This document shows, in pieces, positions 236 through 55,700 of a stretch of 64,000 nucleotides of DNA. The translations under genes and the position numbers were made by a program. Numbering within the stretch: the stretch's first letter is position 1; each line of letters begins with the position of its first letter. The notes below the pieces were generated by a model. That model worked only from the letters and a program-made list of their open reading frames with translations, made no database searches and was not told the origin of the DNA. Source of the DNA: Desmodesmus armatus. Taxonomy: Eukaryota > Chlorophyta > Chlorophyceae > Sphaeropleales > Scenedesmaceae. The DNA lies in the NCBI GenBank assembly GCA_007449985.2, contig VIIQ02000134.1:62001-126000 (forward strand), read 5' to 3'.

Positions 236-2799
236 CGGCTGCTGCTGCCAGGTTGGTCCAAGCTTTGCAGTTGCTCTCCAGGAAGGGCAGCAGCTGCACA
301 CTGCCAGCCTGCTCAGGTCCAGCCCACTGCAGCACAGCACGCTTCATGCACAGCAGACCTGCAGCACACACACACACACACGCATGTCACATCTCTATAT
401 GTTCAAGCATTGGCTGGATGCCCTCCCTGTGTCTATACACACAGCTTTACATGTACTAGGGAGGGTAGTGGCCCCTCCAGCAGTCTCGGTCTCAATTCAC
501 AGAGTCATACAGTCAATACAGCAGCAGCATTGTAGACCACTGCAGCAATCGGTGGTCCCCTGGACCGGGGGGAAAGACAGGAGGTGCACCGACATCAGAC
601 AAGTATCAGGTGAAACGTTTTCCATTACAATATAGCTGTTTACTTCTATGTGCGTGCCGTAACGCACTTTATAAGCCTGACGTCATGGTTTAACCATCCT
701 TGTGGGACTATGGGTGATATGCTTCATAGAACTGCTTGCATGTGACTGATATGTTGCCTACATGCTAGCTATACTTGTATCCTCTCAACACATATACACA
801 CAGGGGGCGACAGGCACTGAGCAACACACAGCAGTATGCACGTTTGTATCGACCCCCCCCCCCCTGAACACACACACTCTGCACCCCCCCCCTGTTGTCT
901 CACCCAGCTCCAGTTCTGGTTCACAGAGTGCGAAGAGGTCCTCCGCCACCACCACCTGTGTGAGGTCACCCCGCAGGTCACTGGCACCAGGCAGCGCCAG
1001 CTGCTCAGCAACACGACGCAGCACACCAAACTCAGCAGCAGCAAGCCCAGCACACTCCAGCCCTGCAACGCTCGCCCGACGGCTCCTGAAGCTGCTGCCC
1101 CCACTGCTGGCCCTGTCACTCACACTGCGCTGCTGCGATGACACACCACCCTCACCCTTCCCGTCCTGCTGGTGAGGATGCTGCTGCTGCTGCGCTGCTG
1201 TGCCGTGATCTGCTGCGCGCGCTGGGGTGTAGGTACCCGGCGTGCAGACCAGTGCGTTGACACCCTGGCACGCTGCAGGGATCCGTACAGACCCCAGCCA
1301 GTCTGTGCCGACAGCTAGCTGCGCCTCGCGCTGTGCTACAGCAGCTACCGCACCAGTACCACCGCCGCCAGCAGCGCGGAAGGGTGCCGTTGGGTTGCGT
1401 AAATTGGCCCCTGCTGTGGGATAGTTGAGGGCCTGGCTGCTGCCCTGGCCCACAATGCTGGCGCCCTTGCTGAGCAGCTTCTGCACGAGGCTGCAGTTTG
1501 AGGCAGCTGTGGGCTGCTGCAGCCACAGTGTGGGGATGCCGCAGCCCGTGGTGGCGCCCTGCACAGCAGCATGACGGAACACACCTGCGTGGATGCAATA
1601 GCTACCCAGCCAACGCCTCACACCACAAGGGCACCGCCCTCCTGCCCCGATGAACACATCAGCCCTGCCCCCATATGTTTGGGGCCACAAGATGCGTAGG
1701 TGGTTAGGGATTAGAAGCCTGTATCAATAGGGGTGGGGGAGCAAGCCACAGTTTATTGAGGAATTGCTTGCTTTAGCCTCCCTGGAAAGGGGCCCCCGGC
1801 CCCACCCCCTCAGCTAGGGATTAACAAGCTGGGGGCAGCGTTGTGCACCCTTCACAAAGCAAACGTATGTGAGTGCAGCAATTCAGCGTATCTAATGATG
1901 CAACCATGCGCAGTTTGACCCAGGAGGTGCAGCATGCCCTCATTGAAGCGGCTGACAAGCCAGCCAGCAATCACAGCATGTGTGGTGTGCACACACAGTG
2001 CCAGTCGCATGCTGACCTGCACACTGACAGGTGTGTCCTGCAGCTGTCTGTGCACCCACCTGTATGGGTATGGGAACACAGTATGTGTCGGCATAGAGGA
2101 TACATGGGTAGCATACAGTGTACATGCGACCACATGCGAGTTGTGTGGGGGTATGGATATGTGTAAAGGTAATGGTAACGGTATGGGTTTGGATGTGTGA
2201 GCACCCACCTGTATGGGTATGTGCTCAGCCACCACACAGGAGAGCCCCTGCAGGGATGCAGGGCCTGTCACTGGGAGAGGGTCCTGGGCGAGCAAGCTGA
2301 AGGCAGACGCATACATGCTGCGGCTGAACTCAGGCTCCACGGGTGGCGGCGGTTGTGCCACCGCCTGCTGCTTGCCCTGCTGCAGTCTGCGCTGCTTGGG
2401 TGATGTCTCGCTGATGGCTGTGCTGCTGTCATCGTTGCGTACTCGACGCACCAGCCAGGTGACAAAGGCCACCGCCGCAACAGCAGGGACCAGATATCTG
2501 GCATGTACATGTCGATCCGAAACCACACTTGCTGCCTTTGCTGCTTGCCCCATACCACTGTTAGACTTGCTGCTGCTGCTTGAGTGATGAGCATGGGTAG
2601 GACTGCTGCCTGCACCGGTTGAGTTCTGCTCCGCTGAGCTGTCTGCTGGTAAATCCTCGCATGTACTCGCATCGGATGCATGCTGATGCTGACCGCTGAC
2701 ATCGGCATGCTGCTGTTCTACTCCTGGACTGTGCTGTTGCTGCTGGTGATGGTGCTGCTGCTGCCGCTGTGGGGCGGTGTATCCACCGACTGAATTCAT
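236..2799 (-). CDS. TOC64: Toc64-like (OEP64) amidase-fold import receptor, C-terminus beyond the window
   Basis: Toc64 proteins sit in the chloroplast outer envelope and receive Hsp90-bound preproteins; they combine an N-terminal membrane anchor, a catalytically dead amidase domain and C-terminal TPRs. Three exons are supported: 2209-2799, 1558-904 and 358-236, with phases 0 and 1 matching. The start ATG has a GCCACC context. The protein opens with a Gln/Ser-rich stretch of about 100 residues, then a membrane segment (YLVPAVAAVAFVTWLV) followed by RRVRN. The amidase part begins at SLQGLSCVVAEH. Exon 2 carries KGASIVGQG, RNPTAPFRAAGGGGTG, GTDWLGSVRIPAACQGV and VVVAEDLFAL, all in family order. 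The catalytic Lys position is Gln and the cis-Ser is lost, while the nucleophile Ser (GSVR) remains. A Gln/Ser-rich insert splits the domain. TPRs are not seen and would lie outside the window. A fatty-acid-amide-hydrolase-like amidase is the alternative, but the lost residues and the anchor favour Toc64. Confidence 0.78.
423..442 (+). repeat. Copy of dispersed CTGTGTCTACAC repeat
   Basis: CTCCCTGTGTCTATACACAC, preceded by GCATTGGCTGGATGC and by ATGTCACATC further up, shares this arrangement with 23102-23161. The copy lies in an intron of the Toc64 gene. Confidence 0.85.
2052..2072 (-). repeat. Echo of the Toc64 exon 1 donor junction
   Basis: These 21 bases are identical to 2201-2221, which spans the last codons of Toc64 exon 1 and its GTGGGT splice donor. 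The copy lies inside intron 1, 149 bp further along the transcript. It creates a second potential donor in the same local context. Confidence 0.7.
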
Positions 2800-4131
2800 G
2801 GTGGCTACAAGCACCCCTGCACAACCCACTCCAGTGATCCTTGGCTTATTGATCGTCGGATATCCCCAAAACGATCCACAATCCACCGGCGATCCAACAC
2901 AACCGAATTAGGCACAGGCTCCCTCAGCTACCAAAGAGAACGGAACATGCATTGGCGCGTCCAGTCTTGTCTGTCTCAAGTGTTGAATCCTGAAGGTCAC
3001 AGCTTGATTCAACTATGTAGCATAGTGCACATGTACAGCTACACACGGCATGCTAAGCTCTAGCCTATTGGGGCATGGGGCCACGAATGATGAGTACACT
3101 ATGCTTCACCTCACATCCAGTTGTCATACCACCATGTTATCACAGAGTCCTTGCAGAATATAGCCTCCCTTACCTATTCCCCAACCCCCCAAATACAGCA
3201 ATACAGTGACGGTGTGCTAACCAGGCCATCCCCAACACTCTGTCATTGGCCACTGAAGGACGCTTGAATACACCAGCCCACCGAACTCCTTCGTAGCAAG
3301 CGGTTTGTTCCAGAATACACCATATATGTCAGCCTGTCAAGGCGCAGCATACCGAAGTGATAAGACAAGGCCGAGCGCTGCAGTTCCCTCAGCACGGCAG
3401 TTCTCTCATTCGGCAGGATAGAGCAAGATGGGTGCACAACAGGCAAACAGCAGCCCTGCTGAAACCCTCCGGTTGCCCACCGCCCTGATCAGAGACTTTA
3501 ATGCAGGGATGTTGATCAAAGGGGCTTCTCTGCAGCGATTACAAGTGGTGGTGTCTGCCTACAACGTCCATGGCAATCCAGCATCATGGTGAAGCATACA
3601 ACCCAACACAAGCTCAACCTGCACAGATACATGTGGCAATTGCACGGAAGGAGTGGCACCCCCACATCTTTGACGGCCCGCGTGTGTGGCGCATCTGCAG
3701 GCAACAGCACACGGCAGACTGTGGGGGATTTGCCCAGCACAAGCGCACCACCATGGTGACACCTTCAACGTTGCTATCAGGACACCACATGCATGATTAC
3801 TACTGCCCCCGCCATACAATGCACCTTGCCTGGGACTGGGTGAAACGACTTGAATAGAAATCAGGTCCTGCACGGTGGCTGACTTGACCTGCGTCTGTCA
3901 GGGCCAAACACCCAACCCCAAGCCGTTCAGGCCTACCAATGCTGCTTAGCCGAACAGAATGCATACCCCCTCACAGGTATGCAGCCAGAGGCAAGCTTGT
4001 GGAAGTCTGCAACAGCAAAAGCTTGCTACACACAAGAAAACATCATGCGGGGTCCATTCCCTGGCAACAGACACTCCTGCTGCACAGCTGCACTGCCTTG
4101 GCTGTTGAGTTATGTGCCGCCGTCACAAAAG
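2800..4131. other. Gap between Toc64 start and RBM39 end
   Basis: This stretch holds the Toc64 promoter/5' leader and the 3' flank of RBM39. No open frame here shows recognisable protein similarity or consistent splice structure. A TTACA (reverse of TGTAA) at 3539-3543 could be the RBM39 poly(A) signal, about 590 nt after the stop, but that is weak. Confidence 0.5.
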
Positions 4132-7100
4132 CTACTGCAGGCCGAAAAACTGGTTGTAGATCTGCACGAACTGGAACTCTGCCTCAATCTTGTGGCCGTT
4201 GTAGAAACGGCCATGCAGGACCTGCTTGGCTGCCTGGGCTGCTGCCGGGCTCACAAACTTGAGGTACACAAAGCCCTGGACAGGTGCAGGCAAGCAGTAA
4301 ACAAGACGTAGAGCAGACCACGTCTGGTCAGTGGAGATAGAGGGAATATGAGGTCAAGGCCGACAGATACAACGCCACATGCACGCTGCTTCCTGTTCTG
4401 TTCCCGCTACCCACCCACTGTGGCACACTCAACATGAGGACAACCCCGGACAACAGTGTTGCTGGTGCAGAGCTTGCAAACCTGGCGGTCAAAACGACAG
4501 CGTGTCTGTCTGATAGCATGACAAGGCTGGCAGAGGTTTCCCCTGCTGCAGCCGTCCACACGTCTGCCCTAGCATGTACCCTCAAATAATCTCGGCAGAT
4601 GCATGACGGCCAGTAACATTAGGGCCAAGAAAGTGAACAGGTACAGGTAAGCCACGCGGCCCCCGCGCCCCGTGCAGCCCCCGCACCTGGCTGTTCTTGT
4701 CCACATGCAGGTGCAGCACGTCGCCAAACTTGCTGCACTCCTCCCGCACATCCTCCGCCACCTCCTTCTCCCACTCAGCCTCGCTCTGCGTGGACGCATC
4801 AAACATGTTCTTCAGCAGCAGGCATTGCGTGGGGATGGGGCTGGCAACACCCAGCAGCCCCTGCTGCAGGCTGAGGTCACCACCACCCCCTGGAACGAGA
4901 CCAGCACCCAGCCCAGCCACAGCAGCAACACCGGGGACCATGCCAGCCAGCACACCACCAGGCCCCAGCAAGCCGCCCGGTAGGATGCCGGCTGTGAGGC
5001 CGATGCCAGGGGCTGCAAAGGGCGCAGCAGCAGCAGGGGCAGCTGCAGGCTGCATGATCCCTGCGCTGCTGGCCAGCCGGTTCATCAGGTCAGCACGCCT
5101 CTGCAGCATCAGCAGCAGCACACGCGGGCAGTGCACAAGCCATCCCATCACCGCCACATTCTTTGAACCAGTCAACAAGAACATGCATGTCTGTCAACAA
5201 GTCAACGCACAAACCACCACCACCGCAAGTGGTGATCTGCGACCCATTTGAAACGGGCATGCCCATGTCACCCATCCACCCTAGCAGGCACTCGTCGGTC
5301 GTGCTTGTGCGCAGGCCTGGCTGCTGTCCCTGCGCCCTGCAGCTGCTAAGCAAGCTGTGGTGTGCCCCTTTATAAAAGGGAGTCAGACCCAACCTCCTGC
5401 GAGTGGAGCGAACCGGCTGCCCAGCCCAGCTAAATATGTGAGAAGCAGCAAAAGTATGTGAAAAGCAGCACTGCAGGGTGTTCAGACACGTAGGATGCAA
5501 CCAGCTGCTACAGCAGCATGGCAACGTGTGTCCCACCTGCGCATTGATCTTGAGCCCCCCCTCCTCATCATCCAGCTCCCCAACCAGCGCTGCAACACTG
5601 CCACCATTGTCAGCCGGGGTGTCCATGGCCGTCGCTGTAACGTTGAGCACGTGGTCCAACAGCGACTGCCCGTGCCAGTGTGTCATCGCGTTGCGCCCGT
5701 CCACAGCGTTCCTGAACACCACATATGCCAGGCTGAGCGCCTGCCCGGACGCGTCACGCACCACACTGATGCTGTCGATGGACCCAAACGGCTCAAAGAT
5801 CTGTCGGATCTCATTCTCACCCAGGCCCTGCTTGAACCCCGACACCTGCAGGCGTAGCGGACCTGCAGGAACTGCTGCTGCTGCTGTGGGCATAGGCAGA
5901 CCAAGGTCACCTAGGCCGAGTACTGCTAGGTCTGCATCAACTGGTGCTGCCTGCTTTGCTGCTTGCGCTGCCTCCCATGCAAGGTTCTTCTCCGCTTCTG
6001 CGGGTTTCACCATGACGGGCTGGTTGAGCAGCAGCTGTGGATGCGCAGCGCGTGCACGGACAGGCAGAGGCACAAAAGGGGCACCAAACAGGGTGAGTTG
6101 CATCGTATTTCTACAGCTATGGGAGCAGGGGCAGTGCTGACTTGTGGTTGGGTGAGAGGGTACCGTTCCTGTCCTGACAGACGCTTGTACCACAAGTAAC
6201 AACAACAGGGCTGCCGGTGCATGGCTTGAAGCGCTGCTGTGCTCATGTAAGACACTAAGCTTGAAGACAGGCAAGTGTGGTTTGAGGGGATTCAGGTCAA
6301 ATGCAATTCAAGGTCAAGGTAGTAGGCAAACACCTTGAAGCCAAGCACACATCCAGTGCCATCAAAAACACGCCGTCCACCAAGTTGCCGCTCTATGCAA
6401 TCAAACAGCCTGTTGCAACAGCATGAGCCATGCTCACCTGGCCTGTAAGAGTCAGTGCTGCAAATACCTCCTCCTGCTTGCTGAACTCCACATAAGCCAG
6501 GCCCTTGCTCCGCTTGGTGTGGCGATCAGTGATCAAGCGGATGTCAGTCACCTGCAGCAAGGGCCAGCAGCAGAACACACAACGCACGTGCAGGCGCAGT
6601 TCACAGCAGAGCAGCACCTGTCAGAAAATGCTGGGTGGACCAAGGTCGTGTTGGTATGCTGCATATGTTTGACATCAGAGAGGTCATTCAAGGAGCCCCA
6701 CACACGCATGTAGCATGCAGGAAGTTGCTTACAAAAGCAACAAAGCCAAACTGGCTCTAAGACAATGCTGCCTGTGTGGTAAGGGCATACGGTAGCTGCA
6801 CCCTTGGTGCTGCACACATCTCGCACCACAAGCCCAACACCTGCACCCAGCCCAGTGATCCCGACTCTGCGTTCAACTAGCAGCTACTGCCAACGCCATG
6901 ACCAGCCTGTCAGGGGACAGTAATACTCAGTCACACGCCACCATGCGAGCTTGTGAACATCATGCTGCAACCATCGCATTTGTGCCCTTGGCTACCTGGG
7001 CACGCCTAGCCAGCACACACATGTCCGCTCAACAGGCCACCGTGCTGCAAGACCATGCAAAAGACCCTTGAGAAAAGCCCCGGGTGCTTGGACATGGCTG

Positions 7101-8587
7101 CTGACAAAGCAGCAAAGACAAGCAGCCTGGAGGTTGACGAGTCAGCAACTGCGTGCGCAGGTTCTATATTTGATGGCTGCCACTTCAAGGTACACAGCTG
7201 CACACAATGCTCGTCCACCTCCCAGGCCGACCCACCTCTCAGTGCAAGCACAGCACACATCTGGCTTGCCTACGCCCATGCGCGATCAACGCAGCCTGTC
7301 ATGGGTATAGTCAGGTCAAGGCCACACTCAGACGAAAGCATGGGAGGGGGTTGTGCAACCTTCAATACTGCTCTGCTATGTTCGACAGCCTCATTGCAAC
7401 CAGGCTGCACCAGCATCATGCCAGTGCAGAGGACACCTAGCAATTACACGGCTGGCATCATTCCACACCAAGTGAACAGGGCAACTGCACAGGGTACTGC
7501 GCGGACAAAAGGAGACCCGTGATCCCATCATCGCACGGCCGGCAGGCCTTACCTGCCCTGCCTTGCTGAAGAAGCCGAAAATGTCGCGCTCGTCTGCCTT
7601 GATATTTATGTTGAACGCAAACACTGTCCGGGTGGCGCGCTCCAACTCGGCCAGCTCCCGCTCCCGGTCACGCTGCATGCGAACTTCTGGAGGGGTGGGC
7701 GAGCGCCTGGGGGAAGGAAGCAGAGGGGCCGGGGGCAGGAGTGGGCACAATGTCCACCACAGACACTGCCTCTCTCCATCCTGGCTCAACAGACGTGCAG
7801 CATCAGCTGGATCCGCTGCTGCAGCTTGCATGCTGCCAGCAACCCCAAGTCCACCACGCAAGACGCGGTAGCAGTTACAAGGAGCGCCGGAGGTGACAGG
7901 GGCGAGCAACAATACGCCAGCAGTCACCCTTACTAGCATTCAGCATACATTATGGTGATAGGGGGGCATCTTTGCCTTCAAACACCTATTGCGCGCACAC
8001 CATGACCCAGTGACCCACCTGCGGGGTACTGCCCTGTCCCGGAAGCTGTCCCTGCCCCTGTCGCCCCGCCCCCTGTCTCTATCCCGGTACTTGTCACGGT
8101 CGCCTCTGCTTCTGTCCTCAGGACGGTTCCTGCGCTCAAGCTCTTCCCTGCAGTTCCACACCCAAGCCAGATGCAGGACAGGGCACAGGACATAGGACAC
8201 ACAGCATTGTACGCTGATCCACACCCACACGGCAAGTGTTCAATGGTTCACTCTGCTGAACGTGCTTGAAACACATCCGACACCTGCCCAGCTGGCACTG
8301 CAGTGCCAAGCAGCGTAGGTGCAGTTTGCCCACCTGTGCCGCCGGTCCCTGCTTCTGCTCCTGCGCCGGTCTGTTCTGAAGTCATTGTCCCGGTCCCTAT
8401 CTCGCCTGCGCTCCCTGCTGCGGCTGCGGTCTCTGTGCTCTCGCCTGCTGTCACTGCCACGCCTACTGCTGCTGCGTTCCTTCTCTCTTCTTTCTGCTGG
8501 TGGATCTACTGTTGCTGCATCGCCGTCCGCTGCTGCCTCAGCCTTGCCCTCTAGTAGCTTCTCATATTCGTCAAACTCGTCTGCCAT
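4132..8587 (-). CDS. RBM39: RBM39/CAPER (HCC1-type) splicing factor
   Basis: RBM39 is a U2AF65-related nuclear RNA-binding factor acting in 3' splice-site recognition. Seven exons join in phase: 8587-8334, 8147-8019, 7706-7553, 6551-6438, 6034-5537, 5100-4687 and 4275-4132. They give 568 residues. The start MADEFDEYEKLLEG is typical of the family. Residues about 30-130 are an Arg/Ser/Asp-rich RS region. RRM1 spans about 154-232 (RTVFAFNINI; KRSKGLAYVEF). The linker motif QPVMVKPAEAEKN precedes RRM2, about 276-352 (RLQVSGFK; LSLAYVVF). A Pro/Gly/Ala-rich linker leads to the C-terminal UHM, about 474-568 (PTQCLLLKNMFD, HLHVDKNSQ, GFVYLKF, LHGRFYNG). Domain order and spacing match animal and plant RBM39. 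All junctions are GT-AG. Intron 3, between exons 3 and 4, is about 1 kb without coding signal. Confidence 0.95.
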
Positions 8588-9040
8588 AACAATCAGCAGG
8601 ACGTAAACACTCTGGACACAGCCGGTTCCCCCAACTTGGGCTCTAGCAGGATAGAGAGCACACCATCTGCTAGAGGGCGACCACACACAATCATCCGCAC
8701 TGCTATGCCAGCAATGCCATGCAAGACAGCAATGCTAAAACTCACTAGACCCTTGAGGTCAAACAAACATTAATGAAAGGCTTACCTGCACGTCCAGCGC
8801 CATCTGCACGACATGTAAGCGTGTTACTGGTGCTGCACAAGTGCTGCCCTGTGAACTTTTGGTGCCGCTTGTGGATTTTGGCGCCACGATCAGTGCCAGA
8901 TTGATTGCTGCACGCTTGATATGGCTTCCACCATCGTTGCCAAGATCCTTACCAACTGTTACGTGGCTTCAGTAATGCTTCTGCCTGCAGGCAAGCGCAG
9001 CACTGTGTTCAGCACTTGGAATGTGCTGTTGACAGGCACA

Positions 9041-9064
9041 TGACAGGCACATATGTGCCTGTCA
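9041..9064. repeat. 24-bp perfect palindrome in a GACAGGCA-rich cluster
   Basis: The 12-base arm TGACAGGCACAT is followed directly by its reverse complement. Further copies of GACAGGCA and ACAGGCAT occur on both sides (about 9030-9095), so the whole 65 bp can fold into alternative hairpins. Confidence 0.85.
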
Positions 9065-15811: not shown

Positions 15812-18800
15812 CTACTGGTGTGGGGGTGGCACAGCTCCGTAGGGGGGTGGTGCACGCATCCACGGTGGCGGCACACCATGCGGCATTGCACCAGGAGGCG
15901 GTCCATAGGGGTTGGGCATAGCTGGTGGGAAGCCGGGAGCACCATAGGGCCCTGCGACACCACACAGGTAGCAGCAGGGCACAGCCATCTGTTATCTTAC
16001 CAGCAGCAGGACCCTCACAGTCTGGCGCATGAAGGCAACACGCATACACATGGTCTTCGCCTTCATGCTGTACATCTAGCCCTATGCTAACACACAAGCG
16101 CACGCACGCACACACGCACGGACAGCAGCACGCTGTGGTACCATCCCGTTATGACAGCTGTGACGAGGTTACTCCACGCACTGCAGTCTGTTTGGTTGTC
16201 ATGCACGCCACCGAAAACCACGACACACTGCAGCTTGCTATCGCGTCAGCCTAACGAGCGCCGGTCAGTCTGGTTATTTGACCACCCTGCTGCATGATAT
16301 CATGATGAACGACTACCATGCGTCATGGCTGCAGGTGGAAGCCCTGGCTGCAAGTGTAACATGCATAGATATGTAAGAGCAAGCTCTGTCCGTTTGGCGC
16401 TGTGTTCACGCCCCCCCCCCCCCTCCCCTGGCCCGCAGTTCACTCACCAGGGGGAGGCATCGCCCAGGGTGGGGGTGGGGGCATCCCTTGCGGCACCTGG
16501 CAGCACAGCAGCAGCACAGCAGCAGCAGCAGCAGCGGTCAATTGAGAGGAGGGGGGGGTGCACCATTTATGCTGCAGGGGCAGCTGCTTACGGCGCCATT
16601 CAGCCTCGCTGCATATTTGGGGTTTCTGCTGCTGTGGGGATGCGAAGGCATCGTCCTGCTTGACGTAGAAAGATGTAAGAGGTTTCCATGTGCAGCGATG
16701 GACGTGAGTGAGCCCCCACATGCACATGTACGGACCCTCAGCATCACTCACCGGGGGAGGGTAGTAGCCATGGGGGGCAGCAGGCGGCTGCATGTGCCAC
16801 GGCGGGGGCACTGCTGCTGCCATGGGCGGCGGCGGCATCTGCGGCATCTGCGGCACTGCTGCTGCTGCTGCTGCCGGTGCTGCTGGCGGTGCTGCTGCAG
16901 GCTGCTGCTGCATGCCAAAGTTCTGCTGCGACTCTGGGATGTGCTGGGGCTGCTGCTGCGGCCCTGTGGCGAAGAGCGTGTGGGGCCGGCTTTGCGCTGC
17001 TTGGTTTGCACGACGCTGGGCTGCCAGCAGCCTTTCGGCCGGCGTTCCATGGCGCTCACCTGCAGGATACAATCGGCAGGTCCCCAAGGATGACACACTC
17101 GGTCAGCATGGTACAGGCACATAGATGCACCCACACGGTGCACACTTCACTTCACCTGTGCTGAGCATGATGAAGGCGCATCGCACAACTTGCGGAAACT
17201 GGAAGGCATGCACAATCCTCGGCACCCAAGCACTCACGGCGTTGATAGACAGCACGGCCTAGCAGCCGGCATCCTGTCTACATAAAAGGAGCTGTCCGCA
17301 CATGCTGCGACACAATATAGAGGCTTGTGTCTGTTTTCTGGTGGTGTTGTGATGAAGAGGGACATCTGAGTCGCACAGGCAGCACTGCAAGATACAGACT
17401 GTACAGTCAGTATAGCCACTTGGGCCTGGTTGACCTGGCTGCCTGCCCGCCTTACCCTTTGTGTCCTTCTTGTAGGCGTATGACACTGTGATCTGCCTGT
17501 TGCAGAGGTACTGCCCACCCATGCCCTCGATAGCAGCATCGCTGGCCTCAAAGCAGTCAAAGCTCACAAAGCCAAAGCCCTTGCTGTTGCCTGCAGCAGC
17601 ACAACAGCAGCACACACACACAAGGATGGCACACCAGTCAGCGGTGTAAGACTGTCCTCGATAGCAGCAGTGCTGGCCTCGAAACAGTCAAAGCTGAACA
17701 AGCCATTAGCCCTTGCTGTTGCCTGCAGCAAACACAAACAGCAGCACACACGAGGATCCCACATTAGTTGTCACACCCAACAGTTTCTCTCAAGGGTGCA
17801 AGTAGGACACCTAGAAACAAAGGCACCTGACGCCACCTTGTCAGCTTCTGTCTTGGCGGGGTGATGAAGGTGCACAACATTTGGCTATGCGAGCCAGGGG
17901 TTGAAGGGGGCCGTGCTGTGGCTCAAGCTATGCCACAGCTCCAACTGTTGGTGGTATGTACCCGCACCTGTGTCTGGGTCCCTCATGATTTTAGGTGTGT
18001 TGATGATGACACCAAAGGCACTGAAGGTGTCGTGCAGCATCTGCAGGGGCACACACGACAACACAGTCAGCACAGTCAGCCAGCCAGCTGGCCAGCCAGT
18101 TGGCACAGCCAGCACAGTCAGCCTAGACAGCTGCAGGCACATTGGCTGATGAGATGGCAAGTGGGCCCCACACCTCCCACCTCCCATCCGATCACAACTC
18201 ACAAGTTCACAACAGCAGCGACAGCCAGTCAGCACAACCGGCTGCAGGCACACTGGCTGCTCAAGCCGGCTGAGCTGTCAATTGCCCCCACATCTTCCCC
18301 TGCCATCCTATCACACCTCCCGTCTGATCACACCTGACAAGCTTGACAAACAGCAGGCACAGGAGCCAGCAGGAAGGGAAGATCCCAGACCGTCTTTATA
18401 CGGATCCCAGACCGTCTTTATACGGAAGTCTTGTGTGGGTACATCCTGCCCCCCCCCCCCCCGGGGCCCCCCTTGTCTGCCTCACCTTCTCGTCTACGTC
18501 TGGGTCAAGGTTCCCTATGAACAGGTTTGCGCCCACGTCGCTGCTGTTGGTCTTGTCCTGGCTGGCCTTGTTGATGCGGATGGCCTTGCCGTACAGCTTG
18601 ACCATGTTGAGCACCTTGATGGACTTGGGGGGGGGGGGGGGCACGGGAGGGGGGGGGGGGAGGGGGGCACTGGGGTGGTGCGGAGAGGGGTGGGTGGGTG
18701 GGAGAGGGGGGAAAACTGCGAGAAGGGGGGGGGGTAGAAACCTTCGATGTACCCCCCCCCCCCCCCCCCCGCTTACACCCCAAACAAAGCGCTGACGCCG

Positions 18801-22253: not shown

Positions 22254-25200
22254 TCAGAGCTGGTCTGCCGTCCACATGTTTGCTGCCACATACTCCTCCC
22301 AGTTGGTGCAGCCAGGGGGTGTGCTGCCCAGTCCCACATCCACCATGTGCTGACCCACATGGGCAGACAGGATCTTGCTGATGGCACGAATGTTCTGGAA
22401 GGCGGGGAACAGCCTGCAGCACAGCACACAGCACGCGCAACACACAGGGCGGGTTTGAGGGAGGGGGGAGGGGGTGCTTACTAAGGGTGTGGGCAGGACA
22501 GGGGGTTGGGGATGGAGGTGATGTGGCATCATGCAGGCAGTTCAATTCCCAGGAGTGTCCTGAAGGATCTTTTGGCATATGCACAACCATGACAGGGTGG
22601 AGTTGGCAAGTACCTCATATCTCTTGACCAGTCCCATAGCACTGTTACCACTGTTACTTTGTGCATCTTTCCTCAAACAAATGAGGTGGAATGAAAGCAA
22701 GCACGGCTCCCCACTGACCTGCCAACCAGCAGCTCATCCATGTCGGTCATCTTGGACAGCTCCTCAGCAGCAAGCACAAACACCTGACAGGACGACCAAC
22801 AGGGGGGGGGGGGAGATGCAGCAGGAACACAGGCAGCACCAGCATCAGCGTCCGAGCACGGACAACAAGCAACATGATCGCTGAAAAGGTGGAAGCTGAT
22901 TGCGGCTGCACAAACAAGCCCTTGCAGCAGCAGCTGCTCGTCGCCTCTTCTATCAACACCTCACCCCACCCCACAGCTCTCGAAAACCACCAGCCTACAC
23001 CTCTTCCTCACTCTACCGTCCCAACCTTTCAAGCTCCACCCCAGAACCCCTGCAGCCCCCCTCCCCCCTTCCACCCCATCCCCCACACTCCAACACACGG
23101 AATGTCACATCCTTGGATGGTTAATGCATTGGCTGGATGCACTCCCTGTGTCTACACACACACATACATCCTGACTGTCCTGCTGTCATGCTGAGTTGTT
23201 TGCACCCCGTGTGTCAACACACACCTCGTCTGTGATCTCCTTTGCCTGTGCCAGCACTGCTGCATAGCCGACAGCTGGGAAGATGTAGGCGTTGTTGGCT
23301 TGTGCAGGGTAGTGGGTCACACCCGCAGCATCCACGATGGGGTCAAAGGGAGAGCCACTGGCAAACAGCACCTTGCCCTCCGTCCAGCTGCACACAACAC
23401 AACCAGTCAAGATGATACACACACAGAGTAAAGACGGCCCGGGCGGGGTGGGGGGGGGGGGGCGGTTGAGGGGTGAGGGGGGGGGCAAAGCGTCGCTGAG
23501 ACCAATGGGATGGTGATGATGAGAAAGCAGGTTTGGCATATGTGCCTGCACAGTGAGGATGAGTGATGTTGATAATAGCAGGGTACAAAGTTCACAGCCC
23601 GGTGAGGGGTTGTGGCTCTGCTACCGCCGGGCCATGGCCCTGCTGCGGCATGTGACCTATTTGACCTAAAATTACTATGCGTGAGTCACCTAATGATACA
23701 TTGCTAGTCCATAATGACTCATAGACAATGCAACCATCATATAACCCAACTGATTACAAGTACTATAAGCAATTACACTTTTTACAGAAGCTTGTTCAAT
23801 GCAGGGGCCCCACTTGCGGGAAAACCTGGCAGCTTCAGACGCAGCCGTGCAAAAGCTAGCCAGCCCCCCCCCCCCCCCCACACACACACAAGCCAAGGTC
23901 TTAACTACCACACATGCGACACCCCTTGGTGTGCCCCCACCTGAACGCCTCCTGGAAGCTGCACTCGCTCTTGCTGGTTGGGTTGCTGAGTGGGAAGATG
24001 ATGGGCGGTTGTTGAGGTCACACATTGCCTGAACCACATCCCTGTTGAAGGCCTTGGCTATGGTTGACACCCCCACCAGAGCAGTGGGCTTCAGGGTCTT
24101 GATGGCGGTCAGCAGGTCGGGGCAGAACTCAACATCGTGCGCAAACGGCTCCTTGTGGTGCTGAAGGTTGGTGCGGCTCTGGCACACAAGACCCTGAAAG
24201 AAGGGCAGCGCACACAGCATAGCATGGCACAGCACGATGAGGCCTTTTACATTGAGCACTGTCTGAGACCTTGTTGTTGTGAAGCATGTGCAACAGAGAT
24301 GGAGACAGTCATGCCCATGCTTCTCCTGTATATGCTGCTGCTGCTGCTATGTTGACACATGACGTGCAACCAGCCTTGGCATTTCAGCAGGATGGTGGGA
24401 TGTATGAATTGTATGAGAATGCTTATGTTGACTCATGAGACTCATTTCTTGACAGGTACATGTGAGTGTGTTGTGCACTGCACATCCATCTACCCACCCC
24501 CGGCTCCCTGGCGTTACTCCCCACCTTGCTATCCATGAAAGGCCAACTTGCTGTCAGTGAAACCTGCCTTGCTATCATCAAAACGCATTTGCTATCATGT
24601 CACCACACCTTGCTATCATAAATGTTCCCTTGCTATCTATGCAAACCCACCTTGCTGTCCATGAAGAAGCAGTGCTGCCTGCCTTCCTCAACCGTCACAC
24701 CATGCCGCCTGCACAGCACACAGCACAACCCATCAGCACTCACGAGGTGGGGGCCGGCAGCACACCTGGGGTTGTGACCATGTAGTGTTTGAATGTGTGA
24801 TGTCATATCTCATACACACATCAATTGCAACCAGCATGTACATGTCAGCATGGCAGTCAAGCTTGAGTTGTAAAAGTGCGTTCTGGCACAGTGTGTGTGT
24901 TGTAACCCCCCCTCCACCCCCCTCCACCCCGCCCATCCACCCGTGTGTCAACACAAACAGGGATGGAGAGACACAGAAAGACAGAGAGATGACGCCGATT
25001 ACCAAAACCGTGTGTGACCCTTGAATGGTTGCCCCCCCTCTCCCCTTGGGCACCCCCCCCTTCAACCCCCCTTCACCCCCCCCCCCACCTGTGCAGGTAT
25101 TGTGCGATGAGCTCCCCAATGCCTGTGCCTGCCTCTCCTGCTCCCAGGAACAGCACCCTGTGCTCACTGAACGGCTTGCCGGTGGCACGAGCAGCGGACA

Positions 25201-26811
25201 GCAGACCAGCAAGCGTGATGCACGCGGTACCCTGGGGGGGGGGGGGGGAACAGCATAGGGGGCAAGGGGGAAAACGGCTTGAGCGGTGGAAGATGACACT
25301 AGAACTTACAAGGGAAATGCATGCGATCCACACAGCAGCACATCCCTACATAAGGATTCTTGCCTGCCGTGGCAAGCGGTGAAGTATCTACCATACCATC
25401 TGCAACCACACATCGCTGCCATGCAACCCCATCTCCATGTGTTCAGGCTCTAAACCTCTTGACTCTGACGCCCCTCTTCCTCTTCCCGTTGGCTCGACTC
25501 TCCCTCACACTGTCTGCCATCAGCACACAAACACACCCCGCCCCCACCCCCTTCCCTACCCCACACACACACGTACGTCACAGTTTGACTTTTCTGGTAG
25601 GACCGTGTACGCGTGGTAAAACTGCTTGCATGCGAAGCGCATGTATTCCATGCATGTAACACACATCTCCCCCCCCCCCACACACACACCAAGTACTCCC
25701 TCTGTCGACACACACACACACACCGACGCACTGCTCAGTACTGAGGGATTACGTCACTGTTGCTTGCCAGTCTTAGTGAGCTTGCATGTATCCGAGTACT
25801 CCATCTGTCGACACTCGCCCCCCCCCCCTGTGCTTACCTGAATGTCGTCGTTGAATGCGCACATCTTGTGCCTGTACTCGTCCAGCAGCCTGAATGCGTT
25901 GTTGTTGCCAAAGTCCTCAAACTGCACCAGCAGGTGGGGCTGCCACGCCTTGAGGGCCTCCATCACCTCACGCATGAAACCATCAAACTCAGCGCCTGCA
26001 ATGTGCGGAGGGGGGGGGGCAGGGGAGAGAGGGGGGGGGGAAAGGGGGAAAATCATCACACACACAAAGCTGTCAAACTCAGCCCCTGCACATGCGCGTA
26101 GGAATGAAAGGCACACTAGTCAAGAGCGCACTTTGGTAACAAGACACTTTAGTCAGAAGGCACATCAGTCACAAGGCACACAGGTAATCACATCATGCAC
26201 GAAGCTGTCAAACTCTGCACCTGTGACCCGGGGGGGGGGGTATCTACAGGGGGGGAAGGGGAGGGGGCCCCGGGCCGGGGCAATAGGGGGGTAGCAGACA
26301 CACCGAAGCTGTCAAACTTAGCACCTGCACATACACACTTGGTTGGGAGCACACCAGGCACAGGGCACCAGTCACATGACACATTACTAATGTGACATCA
26401 GTCAGAAGGCACATCAGTCAAAGGCACACAGCCAAACTACTTTACCGCATGAAGCTGTCAATCTGACAGCATGGGATGCATGACGCCCTTAGTACTGTGA
26501 CCCCAATCAAGTTCATGTGTTCAACACACCCCGATCAAGTCCAAGTGTTGAATACACAGCACAAACAGCACACAAACACCCCCCCCCTTCAAACACCCCA
26601 TCCAAGTGTCTTACTCCCCATCCCCCAACACTCACCTGATATGCGTGGTGCCTTGATTCCCTTGTAGTTGTCGTCCTCCAGGTATGTTGGGTTGTTGGTG
26701 CCAATGTCCACGCAGATGGGCAGGCACTGCATGGGGTTCACACCCGCAGCAGCAGTGTACAGAGTGATCTTGCCCTCACTGATGCCCATGCCGTTGCAAC
26801 CAAGGTCGCCT

Positions 26812-30588: not shown

Positions 30589-31590
30589 TCAGTAGCCGTA
30601 GTCATCTGCGCCTCCTGCTGCTGCAGCTGCTGGGTTCCTCTCAGGGATTTCCGTGACCACCACATCAGCCAGCAGGAAGGTCTTGGCAACACTGCAGGCG
30701 TTCTCCAGCGCACAGCGAATCACCTTGCTGCACACACACAGATATTAAAAACAGCAGCAGAGCACGACAGGCCACAACGACAAAGAGGGAAGATGGTGTC
30801 AAGGGGGTGCAAGAGTGTACTCGGATTACATGAAGAGATGGATTTGGTGTTGTGGAGTATGCAAGGAGGAGGCGGGCTCAGTAGGGACAAGAACAGCTGT
30901 CAGATGGCAGGATGAGGACGGGTGTGGGAGGGTGGGTAGTGATCAGCACCCAGCCCAGACATCCCCACAGCCACAAGAGGGTGCAGGCTCAACCTCTCAA
31001 TGTTGCAGCAAGCTGACACCACCGCCCCCTGTTGGTCCTTCCCTCACGACCAACACAGCAACGTTGCTCCTGCAGCAGCCACTGAAAACACTTTCATGAA
31101 TAGATAAATGATGTCAAATATTATGTATATTGATATGATCATTGATATAATGATATACTTATAATAAAATACTCATAATAAAATATTATATCATTATGAC
31201 CATTGAAACACCTTGAATGCAGCACACGGCCACTCACGTTGGGTCGATGATGCCTGTCTGCATGAGGTCCTCGAACCTGTCCACTGCTGCGTTGTAGCCA
31301 TAGTTGGGGTCTTGGCTGTCAATCACCCGCTGCATCACCACACTGCCGTTGGTGCCCGCATTCTCAGCAATCAGCTTCAGGGGGTAGGTCAGCGCCTTCT
31401 TCACAATCTCAGCACCAACCTGCGCACAGGCAGCAGGAACACATACACCACGCACACGTTAAACACCTGCAGCGCTCTTAGCAATCAGCTTCAGGGGATG
31501 GGTAGGTAGGGGGTAGGCGCCTTCTTGTCAATCAGCGCCTTCTTCACAATCTCGCCACCAACATCTGCGCAGTGCAGCGTGACCAGTCAT

Positions 31591-31646: not shown

Positions 31647-34600
31647 TCATCAATCCATCAATCCATCCATCCATTTTGGACGTTTGTTGTGGAGGCTATC
31701 AGAACGCCTAAGCTACACCCACAATCCTGTAGGATTCAGCCTGATCAACCTAGCCCTTGCATGACACACATATATCCCCCCTGTCCACCCTCACCTTCTG
31801 CTCCTCGTTGCTGAGTGTCTCCTTGACTGCGTCCACCTTGGCCGCCAGCTTGAGCAGCGTGCAGCCTCCACCAATGACAATGCCCTCCTCCACTGCTGCC
31901 TTGGTGGCGTTGAGTGCATCCTCAACACGCAGCTTCTTCTCCTTCAACTCAGTCTCGGTCTGGGCACCAACCTGCGCACACAAAGTGCCATCGCTTGTAA
32001 GTGTCTTTGTGCGACTATCCTTGGTGAGCAGCCTGTACACAGCTAGTGTGAGCACACACCCACTCCCCCTTCCCCCCACCCTACACATCCACACCCACCC
32101 AACCCTGTATGAGACCCCCCCCCCCTGAGTCAGCCACGCTATTCCTCTCCCCCCCCCCCCCACACACACACTACTTGCTTGCATGTGACTTCCATGTTCA
32201 TAGAATGCTAGCTACTCAAGTAATCCCTGTGCTAACACACTCAAATCCCCACCCCACCCACCCTGTGCCCTCAGCCCCCCCCCCCCCCGGGCTGAGTCAC
32301 GCACACCACCCACCCACCTGGATGATGGCCACTCCCCCGCTGAGTCGTGCAATGCGCTCGTTGAGCTTCTCCTTCTCATACTCCTGCTCCGTGTCAGCAA
32401 CAAGGTTGCGGATTTGCTTCACACGGGTGTCAACATCCTCCTGGGTGCGCCCATCACCCACGATGGTGCAGTACTCCTTGCCCACCAACACCTTGGCAGC
32501 CAGGCCCAGCACACTCTCATCAGCCTTGTCCAGGGTGATGCCCAGCTCATCCTTCACAAGCTGGCCACCGGTCAGGATGGAAATGTCCTCAAGGTACGAC
32601 GTCTTGCGCTCACCTGGGGGGGAGGGAGGGGGGGGGGGGCAGAGGGGGCATACGTATGTCAGCACAGGAGCTGCAAGGACAAGCCAGAGGGTGATAGTGA
32701 TATACATGCCACAAACAACTGGGTGGGGGGCTCAAGTGTGTCAGCACTGCAGTTCCCAGGACAAGCCAGAGGGTAATGACATATATATGCCACAATCTTG
32801 TCATGAGCTAGGCCTCACCCTGGACAAGAAGTCGGCCAATGGGAGGTGGGGGGGGGGGGGGGGGCTTGAAACCTGGGGCCTTGACCGCCACTACCTGGAG
32901 TGTGCCGTGCAGCTTCCCTTGCGTGTCCCCCCCCTCCTCCCCCCCCCCTCCCTCCCTCACACCACCTCACCAAATCCTGGTGCCTTGACCGCCACTACCT
33001 GGAGTGTGCCGTGCAGCTTCCCTTACGTGTCCCCCCCCTCCTCCCCCCCCCCTCCCTCCCTCACACCACCTCACCAAATCCTGGTGCCTTGACCGCCACT
33101 ACCTGGAGTGTGCCGTGCAGCTTCCCTTACGTGTCCCCCCCCCTCCCCCCCCCCCTCCCTCCCTCACACCACCTCACCAAATCCTGGTGCCTTGACCGCC
33201 ACTACCTGGAGTGTGCCGTGCAGCTTCCCTTACGTGTCCCCCCCCTCCTCCCCCCCCCCCCCTCCCTCCCTCCCACCACCTCACCAAATCCTGGTGCCTT
33301 GACCGCCACCACCTTGAGTGTGCCGCGCAGCTTGTTGACCACCAGTGTTGCCAGTGCCTCTGCTCAACATCCTCAGCCATGATCAGCAGGGGGTAGTTGC
33401 CGCGGATGGCAGCCTCAAGCAGACCAATCACGTCACGGGCGGTGCTGATCTTCTTGTCAACAAGCAGGATCCTGCGGGGGGGGGGCAGGTGGGGGAGAGA
33501 GGGGGGGAGGGGAGTGGCAGGAACATGTGAGAGAGGGACCGGGAAGGGGGGGGAGATGACAGCATAAGGTTCAATAGGCCAATTGGGTCCTGGGTAGTGC
33601 TGATCTTCTTGTCAACAAGCAAGATCCTGAGGGGGGGGGCACGTGAGAGAAGAGAGGGGGGGGGGTACAGCATCAGCCGATCACGTCACGCGCAGTGCTG
33701 ACCTTCTTGTCAACAAGCAAGATTCTGAGGAGGGGAGGGGACAGGACGAAGGGGGGAGGGGGGGGGGGTTACAGCACAAGGTATACATAAGCAAACCACG
33801 TCGGGGGCAGTGCTGATCCTCTTGTCGACAAGCAGGATCCTGCGGGGCAGGTGGGGGCGGAGGGGGCGGGGGAGTGACCCGGGTAAGGTTCATAAAGGCC
33901 GATCTCGCCACGGTCACGGACGGTGCTGATTTTCTTGTCAACAAGCAGAACTCTGAGGGGGCCGGGGCAAGGGGGGAGCGGGGGAGAGGGGAGGGGGGGC
34001 ACAAGTCGATTCACACGGCCAATCACGTCAAGGACAGAAGAGCGCCAATAATTGAAAGGCTTACTGCACCCTGCCCCTCCCTGCGTTTTCGCCCCCTCCT
34101 TGTGTGTGTGTGTGGGGGGGGGGGGGGCGAAGGACCTACCTGCCGTTCTCATCCTCACAGACCTTGCCATTCGAACCTGTTGGCAAGTCCCCTGCATCTC
34201 GCCCCCCCCCCCTCCCATTGTCCTCTCCATTCTCCCCCATATTTCCCCTCCCAGCTTCTCCACCCCCCTCCCCCCCCTCCCCTCCCCCTTACCCCCCCCC
34301 CCCCCCCCCCGCGCAATGTGACACCCACCTGCAGTTCTCATACTCGCAGACCATGCGCTCAGGGTCTGTGACAAAGTATGGGCTGTAGTAGCCGCGGTCA
34401 AACTGCATGCCCTCCACAAAGATCAGGTTGTCCTCAGCAGTCTTTGACTCCTCCATGGTCACGACACCCTGGCGACCAACCTTGGCCATGGCGTCAGCAA
34501 TCAGCTGGCCAATCTCACTGTTGCCACCTGCATGGAGACAAGCAGCATGGTCGGTGAGCAACAACAACGAAGAGCGGGATCATCTCAGGCCCCCCGATGG

Positions 34601-46684: not shown

Positions 46685-46800
46685 GGCTGACAGCCGCTGC
46701 CAGGGCCCGATGCCTCATGAGGGACACAGGGGAGCTGGGCATGTGCTATGACGTGCTGCTGTCTGTAGGGGCTTGGTATGGAGGTGCCTAAAGCTTTTTA

Positions 46801-47035
46801 GTGCTGCAGCAGCTGGGGACGATGCAGCAGTGAGGCTAGTATTTCATCGCCATTATACCTGACCTGGGAGACTGGGCACGTCAAGTGGGCCCTAGGGGCA
46901 TCCCCATGAGCTCGTGGGCTGGCTAGTGCCGAGGTTGGGAGTGGGTGCATGTACTGTACTGTAAGGGTCCGATGCCATGTGAGAGGCAGACAGGGGAGCT
47001 GGGTATGTGCCCTGGCGTGCTGTCGTCTCTATGGG
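46801..47035 (+). repeat. Echo of the MYB stop-codon region in its 3'UTR
   Basis: 46801-46837 repeats 46643-46687, including the GTGCTGCAGCAGCTGG codons and the GCAGCAGTGAGGCT stop context. 46955-47035 repeats 46699-46770 (GGGGAGCTGGG-ATGTGC and CGTGCTG). The block of about 160 bp containing the end of the coding sequence has been duplicated downstream. Confidence 0.8.
46960..46964 (+). terminator. TGTAA poly(A) signal candidate of MYB
   Basis: The motif lies 276 nt after the MYB stop codon and is the first TGTAA I found on this strand. The preceding CTGTACTGTACTG stretch is repetitive. Confidence 0.4.
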
Positions 47036-52754: not shown

Positions 52755-55700
52755 TCACTTGAGTGAGTTGTAGAACAGGATGAGCACTGTTCCCACCACC
52801 AGCAGCACTGGGATGACGCTGATGCCGTAGAGTGTGCCGTAGCCCACCCAGTCTGGCAGCATGTCTGTCAGGCCCTGGGCTCGTCACCCTTGCGCGCCTC
52901 CTTGCCCATGATGTACGGACGAACGATGCCCGTGGCTGGGGCGGGGGCACAGGGAGGGAGGGAGGGAGGCAGAGAGGGGGGAAGTTGAGGATACTGGATA
53001 CAGGTCCATATGTATAAAAGAAACAATGCCCATGGCTGAGGTGTGCGTGCGTGTGTGTGTAGACACAGAGAGGTGTGAGGGGGGGGGGACAGGGAGGGAG
53101 GGCGGGTTTGTGAGGGAGGGTGTGTGAGGGATGGAGATGCGGGTGTTGACGTTATTGTATACAGGCCCATGATGAAGCGACGCGCGATGCCCGTGGCTTG
53201 GACGCAGGGGGGTGCACAGGGAGGGTGTTTGAAGATTGAAGAGGCACAGGGAGGGGGTGTGAAGGATGGCGAGGGTGAGGTTACAACAGTGCGTACAGGC
53301 CGGTGATGAAGGGATCAAGTCCCACCTTCAAGTCACTTGCCCACCGATCAAAGAACTCAACTACCAGGACCCCACTCAGTGAATTTTGCCACCACTTACC
53401 GTCATCAACAATTGCTGCTGGCTGCTCTCCTCTACTGCTCGAAGCGCTTGATGCGCTTGCCGCGCTTGATGCGCTTGATGCACTTGACGCGCTTGCACCG
53501 CTCACTAACCCACCGCGCAAAGCACTCAGCTACCGCGACCCCATACTGCGAGTTGCACCACTCACCATCATCAACAATTGCTGCTGGCTGCTCTCCTTTA
53601 CTGCTCGAAGTGGTGGATGCGCTTGATGCAGCTGACGCAGCTGACGCGATTGCACCGCTGCGGAGAGCATCTCCTGCTGCTGCTGCTGTCTCATCGTCAA
53701 GGAACGGCCACGACTGCACAGCACAAGCACAGCACACACACAAGAGAGATCGAACAGAACTATCACGTCCAACACGCAGCCAGGAACAGACAAACTGAGC
53801 ACATGCTATAGCTCAGAGTACCTCCACCAACACACCCACCCACTCCACCTCGGCGCACCCACCCACACAAATCCAGCACCCCCCCCCCCCCCGCCACCCA
53901 GTACCATACATAACCTGTGTGTTCCCCGATGCCCCCCCCCCCTGTGTGTAAACTGGAAGGATACAATTAGCATTCCAGAGGCTGTTGGGCACGAAAACTT
54001 GGAATTAGGTTACATATAAGGTCCTTATGACCACCGCAAGGCCTTTTTGCAAAACCCCAAGCTTGGACTTTAGGGTAGCACTAGGGGTGTGACCTGGCAG
54101 TGCAGGGTGACAAATGTCCACAGGGAGCCATACAGGGTGTCTTGGAAAGCAATAACAAAACTTCCAACTGTCATCGATTGTCTTGAGTGCTTTTCTTGGT
54201 TTTCGAAGCTCCTTTGGAGTGGCAACAGCACGTGATCCTACTGATCAACTGGCTCTAGCCATCATAGGCTCCTGAGGACCTTTTACGACACGCCCGCGCT
54301 ACAGTGTGATGACATGCATATCAGCATGCTACTTATTCATCGCGATGGCAGACTGTATTCCGAAACTTGCTGCAGCAGTGATGGGTGCAGCAGATCGGTG
54401 GGAGACGATTGGGAATACGGAATCGGACGGGACAGCAACGAAAGCCTTCTTCGTTCACACTTGATTGTTTTTGTCTTTGACATCATGGCCTAGTTGTGCT
54501 CTGATCATCCTCCACAGGGCCCCTCTTGCTGCACCCCCGTGGTGTACCAGGCCCTACAGTAGACCAGACAGGGGTGACATTAGCCCCAGATGGTCCGGGC
54601 CACCCCAAAGAATGTGTAGGTCTTGGAAAAGACCCCTAAATCTGCCAGCAGACACCTGTGCTGCTCAGTCCAGCTACCCCAATCAATTGTATCCTTCCCC
54701 CTAAACCAAAGTCACAATCTTGAAGTGTCTTACACGTCTGCAATCGTATTGACACACTCCCGGCAGCCCCCCCTCGCCCTGTCCCCCCCCCCCCCCCGCG
54801 TGATGAGCCACTCTGCTGCATGTCCTTCAGCAGAACTTGATAAATTTGCATGACCCTTGCACTTGCTTTGTCCAGGTACAATACCTGTCTGGGGTGCTGT
54901 GAAGGGGCTGACTTGACCCCACACTGTCTGTACCCCCCCCCCCCACCCCACCCCCGGGTGTGTGTTGTGCGCCCCCCCCCCCCCCACACACACACAAGTT
55001 GATAGGAGGTGCCCAGTCAACAGATAAGAACTCACGTGCAACTTTTCCTGTATGTTGAAGTCTACCATTATGTGCGTGCCGGAACGCACTTTGCGAGATT
55101 ACCCTGTCATCATGACATCGAGAGCATGTACTTCCTTGAAGCATGTGTTCAACACACACTGTTCATGACCCCCCCCCCCCCTCCATGGCATGTTGACACA
55201 TGAGTGGCATGTGTGTCCCCCCCCCCCCCCCCCCCCCCCTCGCCCCCGCCCCCCCCCCCCCCCCGGGGCCCCACCTGCATGTCCTCCAGCAGGCGATTCT
55301 GCCGCCCCCCCCCCCTCCCGTCCCGTGCATGTTGTGCCCCCCCCCCCCCCCGCCTTCACACCCACACACCCCTACCCACATGTGACTGGCACCTATTCTT
55401 CATGTTCTCCCCACCTGCATGTCCTCCAGCAGGCACTTGAGTGCCAGCCTGTCCCTAGGCACACGCCCCTCAGCAACCTCCAACAGCGCAGCAGCCATCT
55501 CATCACGTGACACACCACGCTCATCCTGCAGCACACCACAGCACGGCACAGCACCACGTGGCACAACATGTTGACGCGCTTCTGAGGGTGTGCAATTGCA
55601 AGAAGGGATAGCCCTGTCAAAACACAGCACTTCGCTCTCAAGGGGGTCTTGGCATGGATACACACAGACTTCATACAGTGTGCTGCCATGGAAGTCGGAA

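What the first reader, a model, noticed from the sequence alone, without database searches (positions are those of the whole stretch)
2052..55300. Exon-edge echoes: introns repeatedly contain decayed tandem copies of their own splice junctions
In at least five genes, intron sequence next to an exon contains 1-6 imperfect copies of that exon's edge including the splice site. I counted about a dozen junctions: Cpn60-beta exon 6 end, exon 7 start, exon 7 end and exon 10 start; malic enzyme exon 5 start and exon 7 end; the plastid gene exon 5 end, exon 6 end and exon 7 start; SF3B4 exon 6 start; Toc64 exon 1 end; and the MYB stop region. Copies lie on the intron side, in direct orientation, and the exonic part is often better conserved than the intronic part. 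Ordinary microsatellite growth does not explain why units are anchored on exon boundaries. Possible causes are a repair or replication process primed at splice sites, reverse-transcript templating, or selection for splice-site decoys. I know of no described system that fits.
Basis: partly seen in the sequence, partly recalled or inferred. Interest (0 to 1): 0.82.

Follow-up and report, generated by a model that had tools for sequence, protein, structure and literature searches.

The report
Tandem duplications spanning algal splice junctions
In this green alga, short stretches of genes have been copied side by side, and where a copied stretch spanned the edge of an exon a decaying copy of that edge is left in the intron; the copies are real, but ordinary local duplication followed by selection explains them about as well as any special splice-site process.

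Summary
In detail: each of the 12 named edges (MYB's is a stop region, not a junction) has a neighbouring copy that 0 of 100 shuffles reach. The organism is probably a Scenedesmaceae alga.

Anchoring on splice sites is mostly not needed. Echoes are remnants of local tandem duplications whose unit crossed a junction: the intron part was copied too in 17 of 29 tested echoes and in 5 of 9 rechecked failures; copies are direct and local. In short introns (median 302 nt) units of about 190 nt must often cross a junction. Simulated unanchored duplication gives junction:intron-only ratios of 0.87-1.32; outside one gene 9-10: 11-12 are seen.

Against: a cullin gene has echoes at 11 of 24 junctions (11: 1-3); junctions beat circularly shifted positions 22 to 9.4 (0 of 100), and without cullin 11 to 6.0 (12 of 300); echoes look slightly more conserved than neutral decay predicts; three have no homologous spacer.

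Known kind, modest interest; the cullin hotspot is the part worth following.

The parts
2201..2221 (-). Edge of the first exon (donor side) of an amidase/Toc64-like gene
2052..2072 (-). Echo of that donor edge, 149 nt into the intron
   Evidence: 21 of 21 identical, 0 of 100 shuffles
17545..17596 (-). SF3B4-like exon start (acceptor edge)
   Evidence: exon 17456-17590; RRM protein
17653..17728 (-). Echo of that acceptor edge; the gene finder called it an exon (17635-17722)
24520..24665 (-). ~21-nt minisatellite (about 7 copies) running into malic enzyme exon 7 end (donor at 24650/24651)
25960..26000 (-). Malic enzyme exon 5 start (acceptor edge)
   Evidence: exon 25838-25995; PF00390/PF03949
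26052..26329 (-). Three echoes of the malic exon 5 acceptor edge (26052-26090, 26187-26223, 26305-26329)
31389..31429 (-). Cpn60-beta exon 10 start (acceptor edge)
   Evidence: exon 31238-31419
31532..31572 (-). Echo of Cpn60 exon 10 start
   Evidence: score 29, 0 of 100 shuffles; spacer without detectable homology
33285..33330 (-). Cpn60-beta exon 7 end (donor at 33284/33285 by reading; the gene finder missed it because the frame is broken)
   Evidence: sequence; homologues
32869..33278 (-). Four tandem ~104-nt copies of the exon 7 donor edge plus intron start
33425..33476 (-). Cpn60-beta exon 7 start (acceptor edge)
   Evidence: acceptor at 33471
33580..33955 (-). Four decayed ~100-120-nt copies of the exon 7 acceptor edge (33580-33629, 33680-33727, 33794-33844, 33913-33955)
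34323..34356 (-). Cpn60-beta exon 6 end (donor edge)
   Evidence: exon 34329-34527
34134..34167 (-). Echo of Cpn60 exon 6 donor edge
   Evidence: score 24, 0 of 100 shuffles; spacer homology, 1 of 200 shuffles
52905..52943 (-).
   Evidence: not verified as a junction
53022..53204 (-). Two copies of that edge (53022-53041, 53166-53204)
53390..53659 (-). Pair of ~104-nt copies (53390-53493 and 53556-53659) near exon 6 of the same gene; gene finder has one exon 53432-53713 over most of both
   Evidence: score 62
55412..55434 (-). Exon 5 end of the same gene (donor edge, exon 55415-55525)
55272..55294 (-). Echo of that donor edge
   Evidence: 23 of 23 identical
46801..46837 (+). Copy of the MYB stop-codon region (46643-46688) downstream of the stop: same kind of copy, no splice junction
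46983..47035 (+). Long-period copy of 46719-46771, downstream of the MYB stop, no junction involved
   Evidence: d 264, score 33

Best explanation
The echoes are remnants of local tandem duplications whose unit (mostly about 100-280 nt) happened to span an exon-intron junction. Shown: copies are direct and local, and usually both the exon part and the intron part of the unit are homologous. Inferred: after such a duplication the cell keeps using the exon-proximal splice site (5'-most donor, 3'-most acceptor), because any other choice lengthens the protein and is selected against; the extra copy becomes intron and decays. Duplications inside exons are mostly purged; those inside introns are kept. 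Because one copy of the exonic part stays under purifying selection, exon and echo drift apart more slowly than the two intron parts, so old events survive as 'exon-edge echoes'. Some genes, above all a cullin gene, are duplication hotspots for an unknown reason. Which DNA process makes the duplications (slippage, unequal exchange, break repair) is not determined here.
For: Intron parts of the units align in 17 of 29 tested echoes at z>=4 (15 of 25 pairs), and 5 of 9 rechecked failures show homology by local alignment (0-2 of 200 shuffles; for malic 25995 another copy was used than). Direct 172 vs inverted 3 pairs and no inverted junction echo (the direct count includes every pair within an array and overlapping copies, the inverted count neither, so the ratio is only indicative). 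Three of three queried units match only their own gene in the genome (lower-bound search). Geometry: uniform placement predicts junction:intron-only 0.92 for 150-nt and 1.36 for 200-nt units, observed median period 187; simulation with exon purging and decay gives 0.87-1.32 in six settings of 500 events; observed outside the cullin gene 9-10 junctions: 11-12 introns. Short-period units (12-79 nt) are nearly all intron-only: 36 of 317 introns, 1 of 634 junctions. Divergence by codon position 5.7, 4.2, 14.3% (30 echoes) and 18.3% in aligned intron parts (17 echoes) is near what one constrained and one decaying copy give; the redundant set of 47 pairs has 58, 57, 106 mismatches. Five relatives' Cpn60 proteins viewed and four of five cullins viewed have no doubled stretch; the closest (98% and 93%) sit on contigs of at most 2,120 and 3,163 nt, so probably cDNA. 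Long-period copies also occur downstream of the MYB stop.
Against: Junctions carry long-period echoes more often than circularly shifted positions of the same genes: 22 of 634 against 9.4 +- 3.0, 0 of 100 shifts; without the cullin gene 11 against 6.0 +- 2.3, 12 of 300. The cullin gene alone has 11 of 24 junctions echoed and only 1-3 introns with an intron-only pair, which the simulation does not reproduce. Codon positions 1-2 differ about a third, not half, as often as position 3, and 1 of 435 echo codons is a stop, so weak constraint or conversion is not excluded (mutation bias at GC-rich third positions could do it too; not tested). Three echoes (cullin 3648 and 7886/-355, Cpn60 31419) have spacers without detectable homology and a fourth (cullin 8065) is weak, 8 of 200, although their exon parts are 86-97% identical; plain tandem duplication does not predict that unless introns turn over quickly by indels.
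Confidence: 0.78

Rival explanations
1. A junction-directed process (RNA-templated repair, reverse transcription or breaks at splice sites) copies exon edges into the neighbouring intron, so echoes are anchored on splice sites.
For: Excess over circular shifts (weaker without cullin); the cullin gene with 11 of 24 junctions; many cullin pairs match over 21-116 nt of exon but at most 16 nt of intron when ungapped, e.g. 116 + 10 at 3648; three spacers without homology; exon-edge repeat coverage 4.3% against 2.1% at +15..+30 in the intron.
Against: Intron parts were duplicated too in most tested cases; confidence intervals of the coverage figures overlap, and coverage deep in introns is higher, 10.4% at 150-300 nt, though that counts echo copies as well; outside cullin the junction:intron-only ratio matches unanchored simulation; echoes carry intron sequence, so spliced mRNA is not the template.
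Confidence: 0.08
2. Echoes are kept by selection, as splice-site decoys or as alternative exons.
For: 27 of 30 echo splice dinucleotides intact, 1 stop in 435 codons, 65 of 110 mismatches at third positions; four synonymous-only differences in the 116-nt cullin echo.
Against: 27 of 30 intact sites is about what 5% neutral divergence gives (own estimate); non-synonymous differences are common (41 of 92 changed codons); part of the set entered as gene-finder exons, which favours stop-free copies (13 exons removed); relatives' Cpn60 proteins and four of five cullins viewed lack extra residues.
Confidence: 0.08
3. Assembly artefact: interleaved haplotypes or mis-assembled repeats create the copies.
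For: The Cpn60 exon 7 reading frame is one base short against relatives (sequence, proteins), so the assembly has an error or the gene is damaged; no read data were available.
Against: No N in the 304 kb counted; period and copy number differ from unit to unit; a public Tetradesmus obliquus cullin model holds a doubled DKSASDDHERS...GM stretch of the same kind, presumably from another assembly.
Confidence: 0.05

Closest known systems
Internal tandem repeats at exon-intron boundaries (De Grassi and Ciccarelli 2009, PMC2812944; section list and passages seen)
   Same: Tandem repeats that overlap exon-intron boundaries, partly spliced out
   Different: Human segmental-duplication paralogues, minisatellite expansion with transcript evidence; here mostly longer units in an alga, no transcript evidence from the species itself
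Tandem duplication across an intron-exon boundary, potato RdRp (Ma, Lan and Niu 2016, PMC4974935; abstract and introduction read)
   Same: Duplicated segment crosses one intron-exon boundary and carries splicing signals with it
   Different: There a new intron arose; here the old intron seems simply to have grown, and many junctions are affected
Internal gene duplication and intron creation (Gao and Lynch 2009; Rogers 1989; known here only through the introduction of PMC4974935)
   Same: Local gene-internal duplication involving splice sites
   Different: Gain in intron number was not tested here
Introners (Gozashti et al. 2022, PMC9860276; abstract and opening paragraphs seen)
   Same: Repeated sequence associated with introns
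   Different: Introners are transposon-like and create introns across a genome; these units are local, decayed and include exon sequence

Membership tests
Tandem duplication spanning an exon-intron boundary | Copies in direct orientation, close together | tested here: met
   172 direct, 3 inverted pairs in 317 introns with flanks (counts not fully like for like)
Tandem duplication spanning an exon-intron boundary | Unit contains both exon and adjoining intron sequence | tested here: met
   17 of 29 echoes at z>=4, 5 of 9 rechecked failures by local alignment; three show none, one is weak, three at z 2.6-3.6 were not rechecked
Tandem duplication spanning an exon-intron boundary | Frequency as expected from unit length, intron length and purging of exonic copies | tested here: inconclusive
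   fits outside the cullin gene, not in it; exceeds circular shifts
Tandem duplication spanning an exon-intron boundary | Exon-proximal splice site used, extra copy spliced out | not testable with these tools
   no RNA-seq; relatives' Cpn60 and most cullin proteins viewed lack echo residues
Introners | Near-identical copies dispersed through the genome | tested here: not met
   3 of 3 queried units match only their own gene (search gives lower bounds; the other units were not queried)
Splice-site decoys under selection / alternative exons | Echo conserved beyond neutral decay | tested here: inconclusive
   codon positions 26/453, 19/456, 65/454; sites intact 27 of 30

The most novel reading that the evidence does not exclude
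In some genes of this alga (a cullin gene with echoes at 11 of 24 junctions, Cpn60-beta) a local copying process, perhaps coupled to transcription or gene conversion, repeatedly duplicates or refreshes exon edges with their splice sites, so that many junctions of the gene carry a partly constrained echo that serves as raw material or decoy for splicing.
Probability: 0.1. Interest if true: 0.7.

Novelty: new member of a known kind. Interest (0 to 1): 0.33.

Why it matters
Junction-spanning duplications supply ready-made spare splice sites and exon pieces, so a genome that tolerates many of them is a natural laboratory for how splice sites are chosen among near-identical neighbours and how introns lengthen or new exons arise. 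They also mislead gene prediction: 13 predicted exons here were repeats of a neighbouring exon, and a Tetradesmus obliquus cullin model seems to contain such a copy.

Tried and rejected
The first junction-spanning test was even with intron interior at 8-nt overlap (4.0 against 4.2%) but higher at 4-nt overlap (7.1 against 4.5%); gene-finder echoes-as-exons distorted it, so 13 such exons were taken out by rule. The 'gapped' columns are mostly trivial self-alignments and were not used. A first gene-finder training run drifted into tiny exons and was replaced. A whole-genome Pfam PF00118 search did not resolve echoes; one overlap in a CCT-like gene on C571 turned out not to be an echo (12 predicted exons, one 14-nt tandem pair at score >=16, no echo). 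Papers: seven answered searches, of which only 29 (no paper) and 63 had algal terms, listed no report of such echoes in green algae; most subscription papers are not in that library. Corrected on re-check: the junction:intron-only counts outside cullin are 9-10: 11-12; two introns counted as intron-only (window 25996-26635, 32614-33369) also hold junction echoes, which would make it about 11-12: 11-12.
Full report
What was checked. The window is nuclear DNA of a green alga (G000, 115.8 Mb, 831 contigs). The best named relatives of its Cpn60-beta are Scenedesmus sp. NREL 46B-D3 (94%), Tetradesmus obliquus (93%) and Scenedesmus sp. PABB004 (92%), so it is most likely a member of the Scenedesmaceae (inference).

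The observation. Local direct repeats are far above chance (75 pairs at score >=18 against 1, 1 and 0 in three shuffles). Cpn60 exon 7 is the most striking: four ~104-nt copies of its donor edge (32869-33278) and four decayed copies of its acceptor edge (33580-33955). The MYB case is at the stop codon, not at a junction; the malic exon-7 case is a ~21-nt minisatellite; two of the three 'plastid' gene junctions are not supported by my gene models.

Gene models. I had no annotation, so I trained a simple HMM gene finder on the window plus fetched stretches; it learned donor CAG|GTGAGT and acceptor TGCAG|G and gives 303 well-supported introns in 344 kb, median 302 nt. Pfam supports malic enzyme, RRM (SF3B4-like), MYB and amidase and Cpn60. 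It called some echoes exons, most clearly in a cullin gene on contig C12, where three doubled stretches align to the same residues of Cullin-4A and where four of five relatives viewed have one copy. A rule removed 13 such exons, leaving 317 introns in 31 genes.

How frequent. At score >=14, 21 of 606 junctions (3.5%) carry an echo; pseudo-junctions inside introns 141 of 5,874 (2.4%); exon interiors copied into the intron 42 of 5,992 (0.7%). At score >=20 the figures are 1.8, 1.5 and 0.35%. With echo-exons removed, long-period pairs (80-400 nt) mark 20-21 of 634 junctions, and 12-15 of 317 introns have an intron-only pair, against 0.3-0.7 and 0.3-1.3 in shuffled introns; short-period pairs (12-79) mark 1 of 634 junctions and 36 of 317 introns. 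A circular-shift test within genes gives 22 observed against 9.4 +- 3.0, reached by 0 of 100 shifts. The cullin gene holds 11 of these on its 24 junctions; without it the test gives 11 against 6.0 +- 2.3, reached by 12 of 300.

Why junctions. A unit of 150-200 nt fits poorly into a ~300-nt intron, so uniform placement alone predicts junction:intron-only ratios of 0.92-1.36. A simulation on the 195 introns without repeats, with exon-changing duplications purged and six settings of unit length, age and indel rate (500 events each), gives 0.87-1.32. Observed: 20-21: 12-15 overall, 9-10: 11-12 outside the cullin gene, 11: 1-3 in it. So outside one gene the share of junctions needs no anchoring; the shift test exceeds its null partly because shifted positions fall in exons, where duplications are purged (inference). 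The cullin gene is not explained by a uniform process.

What the unit is. If exon edge and adjoining intron were duplicated together, the sequence after the exon must resemble the sequence after the echo. It does in 17 of 29 tested echoes (z>=4) and in 5 of the 9 failures that I rechecked by local alignment (0-2 of 200 shuffles); three others at z 2.6-3.6 were not rechecked. Cullin 3648, cullin 7886/-355 and Cpn60 31419 show none, cullin 8065 is weak (8 of 200). Copies are direct (172 against 3 inverted, not fully like for like) and local: 3 of 3 units searched in the whole genome match only their own gene.

Decay. In 30 distinct echoes the exon part differs at 5.7, 4.2 and 14.3% of codon positions 1, 2, 3; in the 17 with alignable introns the intron part differs at 18.3% (339 of 1,849) beside 6.0, 3.6 and 13.8%. 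One constrained and one freely decaying copy predicts positions 1-2 at about half the rate of position 3; they are at about a third. That, and 1 stop in 435 codons, leaves room for weak constraint, gene conversion or mutation bias. 27 of 30 echo splice dinucleotides are intact, near the neutral expectation at this divergence (own estimate).

Related sequence. One T. obliquus cullin model (P0129, 794 aa) does contain a doubled DKSASDDHERS...GM stretch, which suggests the same process in another species. A CCT-like gene on C571 with 12 predicted exons has no echo, so echoes are not universal.

Known kind. Tandem repeats at exon-intron boundaries and duplications across such boundaries are described in human and potato genes (PMC2812944, passages seen; PMC4974935, abstract and introduction read). 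Introners (PMC9860276, abstract and opening seen) do not fit, because the units queried are not dispersed. I file the echoes as many small members of that known kind; the clustering in single genes is the part worth following.

Noticed in passing
window 33285-33471: Cpn60-beta exon 7 is one base short against relatives' proteins, breaking the frame: assembly error or damaged gene.
   Followed up: partly
L012 (C12:20001-30000), 310-10469 (runs into L013): Cullin gene with echoes at 11 of 24 junctions, by far the densest in the sample.
   Followed up: partly
protein P0129 (Tetradesmus obliquus, 794 aa): Cullin model with a doubled DKSASDDHERS...GM stretch, probably an echo annotated as exon.
   Followed up: partly
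window 46719-46771 and 46983-47035: Long-period duplication downstream of the MYB stop codon, away from any junction.
   Followed up: no
window 41334-41470: 19-nt minisatellite, about 7 copies, ending just before the predicted acceptor of a MYB exon (41487).
   Followed up: no
L014 (C20:20001-30000) 4606-5157; L024 (C1:220001-230000) 5946-6900: A 55-nt minisatellite of about 10 copies, and a near-identical ~465-nt duplication 486 nt apart, both in predicted introns.
   Followed up: no
window-wide: Many C or G runs of 9-20 nt, apparently often in introns near acceptors (seen by eye, not counted).
   Followed up: no
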